Shown here piece after piece: positions 25,065 to 50,516 of a stretch of 64,000 nt of DNA. Each line of letters starts with the position of its first letter. The first letter of the stretch is position 1. Under the pieces are notes generated by a model. It was given only the letters and a program-made list of their open reading frames with translations, made no database searches and had not been told where the DNA came from. The position numbers and the translations under genes are program-made. Source of the stretch: Actinomycetota bacterium (GTDB lineage: Bacteria > Actinomycetota > Thermoleophilia > Solirubrobacterales > 70-9). The stretch lies in contig JAFDWB010000095.1 in assembly GCA_018268675.1 (NCBI GenBank), positions 62,001 to 126,000 on the forward strand, in the 5' to 3' direction.

Positions 25065-25113
25065 GTTGATGGGCCGAAAACCGCTCCATATCAGTGGTTT
25101 TCGGCCCATCAAC
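25065..25113. repeat. Long hairpin E between convergent genes
   Basis: An 18-bp perfect inverted repeat (25065-25082 with 25096-25113) can extend by five further pairs, one of them G-U, to leave a 7-nt loop. Each arm includes an A4 or T4 run next to GGCC. It lies midway between the convergent HNH and gyrA genes and could act as a bidirectional terminator, although no T tract follows the stem. It lacks the interior found in families A-D. Confidence 0.6.
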
Positions 25114-48010: not shown

Positions 48011-48697
48011 GTGCGAAGCGTGGCGGCGCGGCCCGACACCGACGAGCTGGTCCGGCGGGCGCTCGCCTATCCGTACGGACCGCCGACGGGGTCGTTCGTC
48101 CAGGTCGGGGACCGCACGCTGCCGGTGCCGCCGGAGGGGGTCGACGTCGAAGGGCGGCGGGCGCTGCTCGCCTACGGGGCGAACGCATCGCCCGCGGCGC
48201 TGTCTCGCAAGCTGGCCGACCTGCCGCCCGCGCCGCTCCCGGTGCTGCGGATCGCGCTCGGTGGCTGGGACGTCGTCTACTCGGCGCACATCACCCGCTA
48301 CGGCACCGTCCCGGCCGCGGTCGTCCCCAGCCCCGGCACGGTCGCGAGCGTCCACCTCGCCTTCCCCGACGACGAGCAGCTCGCGACCCTGGCGGCGACC
48401 GAGGGCGAGAACTACCGGCTCGAGCGGCTGGTCGACTACTCCGCCGCCCTCGAGGTCGGGGGAGAGCCCCCGCCCGAGATCGACGCCTTCGTCAGCATCT
48501 TCGGCCCGCTGCCCCTCGACGGCGCGCCGGTCGCCCTCGCCGCGATCCCCGCCCGCGACCGCGCCTTCCCCGAGCTCTCGACCCCCGCGATGATCGACCG
48601 CGTCCGCGCCGCCCTCCGTCCCGACCTCACGGTCCCCGAGTTCGTCCTCGAACAGATCGCCCGCGGCGGTATGTGCCCGCTTCCGGCGCTGGGGTAG
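48011..48697 (+). CDS. Gamma-glutamylcyclotransferase-like fold protein (tentative)
   Basis: This 228-residue cytoplasmic protein is not clearly assigned. The stretch ALLAYGANASPAALSRKL resembles the nucleotide- or substrate-binding Y-G-S/A-N-x-x loop that opens gamma-glutamylcyclotransferase-like proteins. VYSAHITRYGTVPAAVVPSPG and a later E-containing strand are compatible with that fold. The catalytic glutamate cannot be placed with confidence. It has no transmembrane segment or export signal. It is divergent from the YmdB gene, and its 3' end faces repeat B2. Another small-molecule-binding role is equally possible. Confidence 0.45.
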   Translation: MRSVAARPDTDELVRRALAYPYGPPTGSFVQVGDRTLPVPPEGVDVEGRRALLAYGANASPAALSRKLADLPPAPLPVLRIALGGWDVVYSAHITRYGTVPAAVVPSPGTVASVHLAFPDDEQLATLAATEGENYRLERLVDYSAALEVGGEPPPEIDAFVSIFGPLPLDGAPVALAAIPARDRAFPELSTPAMIDRVRAALRPDLTVPEFVLEQIARGGMCPLPALG

Positions 48698-48719
48698 CCG
48701 GCGCCCGGGGAAGGGACGA

Positions 48720-49141
48720 CGGCCGTCTCGGCCACGACCCTGGCAGGCTGTGGCCGTGGCCGAGACGGCCGGGTCTGTGGGAAGAGGAGGAAGGGTCGCG
48801 GGGGAGGGGGGGGTGACGGGAGCCGCACGGGACCGTCACCGAAGTGGGACCTCGTCCTCGTCGGGAACGCGGTCGGCCGGGAAAAGAGGAGGTCGTCACG
48901 GTTCCTCCCGTCTTCTTCAGACGCTCGAGACGCGCTGCAACGATAAGTGTCGCTATGGCGACCTGAATCCTTGCAGCGCGTCCAGGGCCCTCGATCCCGG
49001 CCCCGCCACCGGGCGCCCTGTCGCCTCTCTCGCAAGGGACGACTTCCTCCGTCCCTCCGCCCGCTCCCTCACGAACCCCTCACGTCCTGGGCGTCTCATG
49101 GGGGCACAGCCTGCCAGGACCCCCATGAGACGCGCAGGACG
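48720..49141 (+). repeat. Structured repeat B2 with terminal hairpins whose loops are complementary
   Basis: This 466-bp intergenic stretch (48698-49163) has no recognisable gene. It begins with a 17-bp hairpin (48720-48736 with 48755-48771) and ends with a 14-bp hairpin (49091-49104 with 49120-49133), extended past one mismatch by 49083-49089 with 49135-49141. The first loop contains CCTGGCAGGCTGTG (48739-48752) and the second its exact reverse complement (49105-49118). Inside are a GGTGACGG stem (48812-48840), a 12-bp stem (48929-48940 with 48971-48982) around GTCGC-TATG-GCGAC, and the two blocks shared with B1. Confidence 0.7.
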
Positions 49142-49163
49142 CACCTCGGACGGCCGCACCCCT

Positions 49164-50516
49164 CTAAACCCGCGCGAACCTGCGCAAGGCGAGCCGTGCG
49201 ATCAGGGCGTAGGCGACGCCGAGGATCGCCAGGTGCAGGAGGGGGGCGCCGAGGCTGCCGTTGCCGGCTTCGAGCGCCGCGGTGAGCGCTTCCAGCGCCG
49301 GCTTGAACGGGAAGATCGCGGCGATCAGCTTGATCACGTCGTAGAGGCCCGCGCCGACCGTGCCGGAGGGGACGAGCGAGAGGAAGGCGACCGGCAGGGT
49401 CACCATGAAGGCGAGGAGGGAGACGGCGCGCACCTCGCGAGCGGCCGCGCCGAGGGCCGCGCCCGCGGCCGCCAGGGATGCGCCGCCGACCACGATCGCC
49501 GCCAGCCAGAGCCCGAAGCGCCCCCATTCCAGCGGCACGAAGATCTGCAGGCCCGCCAGCATCAGCACGGTCACGACGAGGCCGACCGCGACGCCGAGGA
49601 GGATCTTCTCGCCCAGCAGCGCCTCGGTCGAGACGAGGCCGCGGGTGAGTCGCGGGTAGGCGTTCTCCTCGCGCTCCAGGGCGAGCGACCCGGCGACCAG
49701 GAGGACCGCGACGAAGGCCAGGGTGAGGGTCGCGGCGACGGCGACCGCGAAAGTTTCGAGCGGCGGCGCGGAGCCGCCGACCGCGACCTTCTCGACCCGG
49801 ATCGGCTGCGCCAGCCGGTTGATCAGCGGCCCGGCGATGTCGAGGTTCTCGCTCGCCTGGGTGGCGAATTCGGTGACCTCGGAGAGTGCCGCGCGCAGCG
49901 GCCCGCGCGGCAGTGCCGGTTCGATCGCTTCGAGGATGCGGGCGCTCGCCTGCAGGCCGAGGACGTGGACCGCCCCCGCGAGCACCGGCAGGTTGCCGCC
50001 CTTGATCACCAGGTTCAGGTACTTGCCGCCTTCGACCGCGATCCGCTTCGCCAGCGCCAGATTCGCCTGCGCGAGCAGCGCTTCGATCCGGTCGTCGACC
50101 GCGGCCGCCTTCAACGGGTCGGATTCGTTGACCAGCACTTCGACCTTCGGCGTGCCCGGCGCGAGGGTGGAGAGGGAGTTGATCTTGTTCACCAGGTCTT
50201 CGGGCAGGACCAGCGCCGCGAGCACGTCCCCCGATTCGACCTTGGCCACGGCTTCCTGGCGCGAGTGGACGTGGACGCATTCGACCCGGCTGCAGATCCG
50301 CCGCTGGACGTTGGCCGAGGGGAGCTTCGTGCCGCTGAGGCTGACCCGGGCGTTGTCGGGGACTTCGTTCAGCAGCGCGACCCGCGGCCTTTCCGGCCCG
50401 CCCGAGATCGCGAGGCCCACGAGCACCGCGATCAGCACCGGGTAGAGCACCAGCAGGGCCGCCTGGAGCGGCGAGCGGCGGAGGATCTGCAGATCCTTCA
50501 GCAGCAGCCAGCGCAC
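49164..50516 (-). CDS. ABC-2 type transporter permease
   Basis: This exporter permease of about 450 residues is of the ABC2_membrane_3 type. One helix (residues about 20-40) is followed by a large extracytoplasmic domain (about 45-240) and then five or six helices, with AFVAVLLVAGSLALEREENAYPRL marking the return inside and the usual E-R-E-x-x cytoplasmic loop. The substrate is not evident. GTG 50516 is 2 bp after the ATPase stop. Glutamate codons are mostly GAA in the outer domain (about 14 of 17) and mostly GAG inside. Repeat B2 lies at its 3' side. Confidence 0.85.
   Translation of the reverse strand: MRWLLLKDLQILRRSPLQAALLVLYPVLIAVLVGLAISGGPERPRVALLNEVPDNARVSLSGTKLPSANVQRRICSRVECVHVHSRQEAVAKVESGDVLAALVLPEDLVNKINSLSTLAPGTPKVEVLVNESDPLKAAAVDDRIEALLAQANLALAKRIAVEGGKYLNLVIKGGNLPVLAGAVHVLGLQASARILEAIEPALPRGPLRAALSEVTEFATQASENLDIAGPLINRLAQPIRVEKVAVGGSAPPLETFAVAVAATLTLAFVAVLLVAGSLALEREENAYPRLTRGLVSTEALLGEKILLGVAVGLVVTVLMLAGLQIFVPLEWGRFGLWLAAIVVGGASLAAAGAALGAAAREVRAVSLLAFMVTLPVAFLSLVPSGTVGAGLYDVIKLIAAIFPFKPALEALTAALEAGNGSLGAPLLHLAILGVAYALIARLALRRFARV

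What the first reader, a model, noticed from the sequence alone, without database searches (positions are those of the whole stretch)
48720..49141. Element B2 is bounded by two hairpins whose 14-nt loops are exact reverse complements
Loop 48739-48752 (CCTGGCAGGCTGTG) is complementary to loop 49105-49118, while the two hairpin stems are unrelated in sequence. In RNA this would form a long-range kissing interaction closing a 420-nt domain. In DNA it gives inverted hairpin ends like those recognised by single-strand transposases. The interior holds further nested stems and no evident gene.
Basis: seen in the sequence. Interest (0 to 1): 0.65.

Follow-up and report, generated by a model that had tools for sequence, protein, structure and literature searches.

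The report
Dispersed hairpin-doublet repeat between convergent genes
The two matching hairpin loops are real: they are the ends of a non-coding DNA element scattered in dozens of copies, mostly where two genes run head-on into each other, in one genus of uncultured actinobacteria, and what copies it is unknown.

Summary
Loops CCTGGCAGGCTGTG (48739-48752) and CACAGCCTGCCAGG (49105-49118) are exact reverse complements on unrelated stems, and this recurs. The 466-nt element (48698-49163) is one of at least 40 dispersed copies in this genome. It occurs in six or seven species of one genus (Solirubrobacterales, family 70-9); a model of its end hairpin hits nothing else among 232 genomes of the order. 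In 64 of 65 complete elements from six species, a left and a right hairpin carry the same loop in inverted orientation, identical at 12-14 of 14 positions. Stems diverge with strong compensatory change while the loops stay frozen. The loops do not covary within species, so the complementarity reads better as an inverted-repeat recognition sequence shown in hairpin loops than as a co-evolving RNA kissing pair. Elements sit mainly between convergent genes (36 of 56, against about 13% of other junctions). At this locus relatives have an empty site or an unrelated small hairpin. No Y1/RAYT transposase was found in the genus. The closest known kind is the REP doublet/REPIN, but this is larger, loop-conserved and lacks the enzyme. 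Best reading: a non-autonomous mobile palindrome doublet, perhaps a two-way mRNA 3'-end element; mobiliser and function are inferred.

The parts
48698..49163 (+). whole dispersed element (466 nt, left end to right end); outer limits approximate
   Evidence: fills the gap between two convergent stop codons; relatives have 5, 20 or -1 bp there; homologous copies
48698..48719 (+). left flanking unit (GGCGCCCGGGG then AAGGGACG), single here, tandemly repeated in species G006
48720..48771 (+). left terminal hairpin, stem of about 20 bp
   Evidence: covariation; model hit 74.9 bits
48739..48752 (+). left loop CCTGGCAGGCTGTG
   Evidence: core GGCAGGCTGTG strongly conserved in six species
48812..48840 (+). 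interior hairpin GGTGACGG...CCGTCACC
   Evidence: aligned
48929..48982 (+). central hairpin GACGCGCTGCA...TGCAGCGCGTC with tip TATG
   Evidence: counterparts seen in other species and double-sided pair changes in G000 copies
49083..49141 (-). right terminal hairpin, stem of about 22 bp, sequence unrelated to the left stem
49105..49118 (-). right loop, reverse complement of the left loop
49145..49157 (+). right flanking unit CTCGGACGGCCGC, tandemly repeated in species G006
48020..48697 (+). upstream convergent gene (no Pfam match); its stop abuts the element
49164..50516 (-). downstream convergent gene, ABC-2 type transporter permease; its stop abuts the element

Best explanation
This is one copy of a dispersed, non-coding, non-autonomous repeat. 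It is a doublet of two long hairpins in inverted orientation around a structured spacer, inserted where two genes converge. Shown: copies, orientation, covarying stems, frozen loops, empty sites, convergent-gene preference. Inferred: the same 11-14 nt recognition sequence is presented in the loop at each end, so an unidentified protein (or nucleic-acid) partner meets the same hairpin loop whichever end it approaches; the loops are complementary because the ends are inverted repeats. Also inferred: new copies spread by an enzyme that is not a Y1/RAYT transposase, or by DNA repair and gene conversion of palindromes. Selection tolerates them at gene 3' ends, where on transcripts from either gene they could act as a two-way termination or 3'-end-protecting element.
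For: At least 40 dispersed copies in the own genome and more hairpins by covariance model. Paired inverted ends in 64 of 65 complete elements. Stem covariation in 15 of 22 pairs, score 0.329 against 0.120 shuffled, 0/500. Loop core strongly conserved in six species. Empty orthologous site in G003, G007, G008, and a different small hairpin in G006 and G011. 36 of 56 elements between convergent genes against 46 of 366 other junctions, p 8e-16. Copies cluster by species, 65 of 68 nearest neighbours, even at orthologous sites, so they amplify or homogenise within genomes.
Against: No mobilising gene was found: no Y1; reverse transcriptase and IS110 families do not follow the distribution; no recurrent gene next to copies. 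No target-site duplication was demonstrated and the outer ends are fuzzy. No U-tract follows the terminal hairpins, so simple intrinsic termination is not supported. Gene-context calls rest on a home-made gene caller.
Confidence: 0.6

Rival explanations
1. A large structured RNA whose two end hairpins kiss through the loops, closing a 420-nt domain in cis.
For: Strong folding, covarying stems, interior covarying pairs, very stable own-loop duplexes. The species with G at loop position 3 on the left (G003) usually has it on the right too.
Against: No within-species loop covariation, p 0.16; in G000 15 of 16 pairs carry an unmatched change. Some one-sided changes give G-U but the T/G site gives a real mismatch. 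Loops are frozen rather than drifting in concert. One copy has the right loop flipped and three have lost the right hairpin. Not in Rfam. No promoter-like site.
Confidence: 0.2
2. A REPIN or IS200/IS605-type element moved by a Y1 (RAYT) transposase acting on single-stranded hairpins.
For: Inverted hairpin doublet, extragenic, many copies, 3' ends of convergent genes, as described for REPs (PMC3733652; PMC3116915).
Against: No Y1_Tnp in any of 12 genomes of the genus although E. coli and four other controls ring. REP families are defined by stem and tag, whereas here the loop is the conserved part. No unpaired GTAG or CGTC tag at the stem foot (sequence inspection).
Confidence: 0.07
3. A classical MITE: the ends are terminal inverted repeats of a DDE transposon whose autonomous copy is lost or not yet recognised.
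For: Inverted ends with a conserved core, non-coding, dispersed, species-specific bursts.
Against: No longer copy with a transposase was seen in the fetched loci (paired ends at most about 850 nt apart). No clean ends or target duplication. Ends are palindromic with covarying stems, which TIR binding alone does not require.
Confidence: 0.15
4. Not mobile: convergent terminators that arose or converged at many sites and are kept by selection on mRNA 3' ends.
For: Convergent-gene preference; at this locus two relatives carry another hairpin.
Against: Copies are homologous over hundreds of bases including linkers, so they were copied. Three carrier species have no hairpin at all at this locus.
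Confidence: 0.06

Closest known systems
REP doublets / REPINs and CGTC-tagged REPs (PMC3116915, PMC3733652)
   Same: Extragenic palindromes in high copy, inverted pairs, located downstream of genes and between convergent genes close to both 3' ends. CGTC-REPs also lack a known dedicated transposase.
   Different: Stems of about 20-26 bp and loops of 12-14 nt instead of about 8-9 bp stems with 4-5 nt loops (CGTC families); 200-850 nt between the two loops with structured spacer; the loop, not stem or tag, is conserved; left and right stems unrelated; flanking tandem arrays in one species; Actinomycetota; no RAYT found.
MITEs
   Same: Short, non-coding, dispersed, inverted ends, fold into long hairpins.
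   Different: No parent transposon seen, no clean target duplication, ends are themselves palindromes with covarying stems.
Large ornate bacterial RNAs with kissing loops (GOLLD, ROOL, OLE; PMC12286853)
   Same: Several hundred nt, multi-hairpin, potential loop-loop pairing.
   Different: Dozens of copies per genome at convergent junctions, no Rfam match, loops not covarying, copies carry inserted hairpin modules.
IS200/IS605 subterminal hairpins
   Same: Hairpin ends.
   Different: Here the ends are inverted and no Y1 enzyme was found in the genus.

Membership tests
REP/REPIN | extragenic palindromes in inverted pairs, many copies | tested here: met
REP/REPIN | RAYT (Y1) transposase in the genome | tested here: not met
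   PF01797 absent in 12 of 12 genus genomes, controls positive
REP/REPIN | unpaired GTAG or CGTC tag at the stem foot, 20-40 bp unit | tested here: not met
   hairpins of about 52-60 nt; CGTC occurs only inside the paired right stem (inspection)
MITE | terminal inverted repeats | tested here: inconclusive
   inverted loop core, but outer ends fuzzy
MITE | target-site duplication | tested here: inconclusive
   empty sites found only in diverged species; no duplication visible
MITE | autonomous relative with the same ends | tested here: inconclusive
cis kissing-loop RNA | loop changes compensated at the partner loop | tested here: not met
   within-species permutation p 0.16; across species p 0.0014, which reflects species-level differences
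cis kissing-loop RNA | transcribed as a discrete RNA | not testable with these tools
   no expression data
Rho-independent terminator | GC stem followed by U-tract | tested here: not met
   terminal hairpins lack it; only one weak inner site
IS200/IS605 | Y1 HUH transposase | tested here: not met
Rfam families | match above gathering score | tested here: not met

The most novel reading that the evidence does not exclude
One clade of this genus carries an unrecognised system that multiplies palindromic DNA. Several unrelated hairpin families (this doublet, the GATGGGCCGAAAA hairpin, the CTGTTCCTTATG hairpin) expand together, nest in one another and replace each other at convergent gene ends, without a Y1 transposase. 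The doublet is recognised through its loop sequence rather than its stem.
Probability: 0.35. Interest if true: 0.75.

Novelty: new variant of a known kind. Interest (0 to 1): 0.55.

Why it matters
Bacterial palindromic repeats are usually explained by Y1 (RAYT) enzymes, and CGTC-REPs are a standing puzzle because they lack one. Here is a genus-restricted, high-copy case with no such enzyme found, with loop rather than stem conservation, and with closely related carrier and non-carrier species. That makes it a good setting to find what multiplies palindromes and whether they serve as two-way 3'-end elements.

Tried and rejected
Chance: rejected by the recurrence of the paired loops. Rfam RNA: only noise below gathering scores. 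Phage, plasmid and viral origin: no match. Y1 transposase: absent. Y2/IS91: none found, but the control was silent, so not informative. Reverse transcriptase and IS110: present in only 2 and 3 genomes and not matching carriers. A gene linked to the copies: none, only common families mostly at about 30-40% identity. Strand-of-function test by G-U versus A-C mismatches: A-C exceeds G-T on the GGCAGGCTGTG strand at both ends (33:10 events, p 0.0006), which points to the opposite strand at each end and fits no simple one-strand RNA model; left unexplained. Papers on palindromic repeats in Solirubrobacterales: none found. Laying out the whole genome: not available.

Full report
Observation. The two hairpins and the exactly complementary 14-nt loops are in the sequence as described, and the region folds much better than shuffles (z -7.5). 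The region is a non-coding gap that runs from the stop codon of a + strand gene (ends 48697) to the stop codon of a - strand ABC-2 permease gene (ends 49164).

It is a repeat family. Searching the own genome (4.2 Mb, 95 contigs) with the 476-nt stretch gives at least 40 separate places, several at contig ends. Related copies occur in G003, G005, G006, G007, G008 and G011 of the same genus; five smaller same-genus genomes and the other genera searched have none, apart from one weak hit in G022. Public names for four carriers are Solirubrobacterales bacterium 70-9 and the MAGs SZAS-9, SZAS-15 and RYN_247. No phage, plasmid or viral contig matched.

Architecture. In 68 complete elements from six species the two loops face each other inverted. 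On the deduplicated set, 64 of 65 pairs are inverted; the exception is L040, whose right loop is flipped. Distances between the loops run from about 200 to 850 nt. The left and right stems differ from each other and between species, for example CGGAGGCG/CGCCTCCG in G008. Fifteen of 22 stem pairs have changes on both sides, with covariation score 0.329 against 0.120 in shuffles and at most 0.074 in slid controls. Apart from one T/G and one A/G site, the loop positions are near invariant at both ends in all six species. Between the ends lie further hairpins. The central one has counterparts in the other species, and a CAGCTGTTCCTTATG...GAACAGCTG hairpin is cleanly present in most G000 copies and absent in some, including the window copy. 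In G006 both outer flanks grow into tandem arrays of roughly 35-40-nt units.

Are the loops a kissing pair? If pairing in cis were the constraint, a change in one loop should be matched in the other. Over 64 pairs the loops differ at 0, 1 or 2 of 14 positions in 25, 28 and 11 pairs. Within species, shuffling partners gives about the same number of mismatches (50 observed, 52.2 +/- 1.8, p 0.16); only differences between species exceed chance (p 0.0014). The window copy is the only perfect one of 16 in its genome. Pairing would still be thermodynamically strong (median -27 kcal/mol). So kissing is possible but not what best explains the freezing. A shared recognition sequence presented at both inverted ends explains the identity, the inversion and the lack of covariation.

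Mobility. The locus is syntenic in the genus. G007, G008 and G003 have 5, 20 and -1 bp between the two genes, and G006 and G011 have a short unrelated hairpin there, so the element is most simply a gain in G000. Copies are most similar to copies in their own species (65 of 68), also at orthologous sites such as L104/L126, which means amplification or homogenisation within genomes. No enzyme was found: Y1 absent with controls positive; reverse transcriptase and IS110 sporadic; Y2 search uninformative; no linked gene. Outer ends are fuzzy and no target duplication could be shown.

Context. Of 56 elements with genes called on both sides, 36 lie between convergent genes, 16 between tandem and 4 between divergent genes. 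Other junctions in the fetched loci are 46 of 366 convergent (p 8e-16); with gaps of at least 50 nt, 19 of 171 (p 3e-14); the window itself has 8 of 58 (p 3e-8). In most species the element lies within tens of bases of the stop codons. This is the placement reported for REP sequences (PMC3733652).

Mechanism proposed. Shown: inverted hairpin doublet, frozen loop, covarying stems, convergent-gene preference, species-specific copies, occupied and empty sites. Inferred: a loop-recognising partner, a mobiliser other than Y1, and a role as two-way 3'-end element. The terminal hairpins lack a U-tract, so protection of mRNA ends or factor-assisted termination is more likely than simple intrinsic termination. 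G-U versus A-C mismatches in the stems are strand-asymmetric in mirror fashion at the two ends (33:10), an observation that none of the models predicts well.

Relation to known kinds. It works like a REP doublet/REPIN (inverted palindromes, many copies, 3' ends; PMC3116915, PMC3733652), but two defining features were tested and not met (RAYT; tagged short stem), so it is not filed as a REPIN. It is best called a new variant of dispersed palindromic repeats. Other hairpin families follow nearly the same species pattern: GATGGGCCGAAAA has 33-146 hits in six carriers, one in G010 and none in the other five; CTGTTCCTTATG has 101, 181 and 175 hits in G000, G006 and G008, 33 in G005, and few or none elsewhere. 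This hints at a general palindrome-multiplying process in this clade.

Noticed in passing
window 25065-25113: A small hairpin GTTGATGGGCCGAAAACCGCT...AGTGGTTTTCGGCCCATCAAC, also between convergent genes (HNH nuclease and gyrase A). The same family sits at the orthologue of the 48.7-kb locus in G006 and G011, with a variable inner stem; 33-146 motif hits per carrier genome and 0-1 in the other genus genomes.
   Followed up: partly
L018 and most G000 copies, interior; flanks of G006 copies: A second hairpin family (CTGTTCCTTATG...CATAAGGAACAG) is inserted as a module inside many elements and also stands alone; 101, 181 and 175 motif hits in G000, G006 and G008.
   Followed up: partly
L168-L247 (G006), outside both end hairpins: Tandem arrays of degenerate units of roughly 35-40 nt flank the element on both sides in G006, different units left and right.
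   Followed up: partly
terminal stems in all species: Mismatched stem pairs are A-C rather than G-T on the GGCAGGCTGTG strand at both ends (33:10 events), mirror-symmetric about the element centre.
   Followed up: partly
L040; L025, L037, L046: One copy has the right hairpin loop inverted in place; three copies have lost the right hairpin, leaving the flanks joined near the stem base.
   Followed up: no
genus-wide: Carriers of these repeats have 3.4-4.7 Mb genomes, non-carriers of the same genus 2.4-2.9 Mb. G005 (3.4 Mb) has related interior sequence but no hit to the loop-hairpin model, possibly a relic.
   Followed up: partly
L014, L015, L019, L023 interiors and the right flank of L034: A third hairpin module GTGAGTTCGCA...TGCGAACTCAC occurs inside some elements and outside another.
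   Followed up: no
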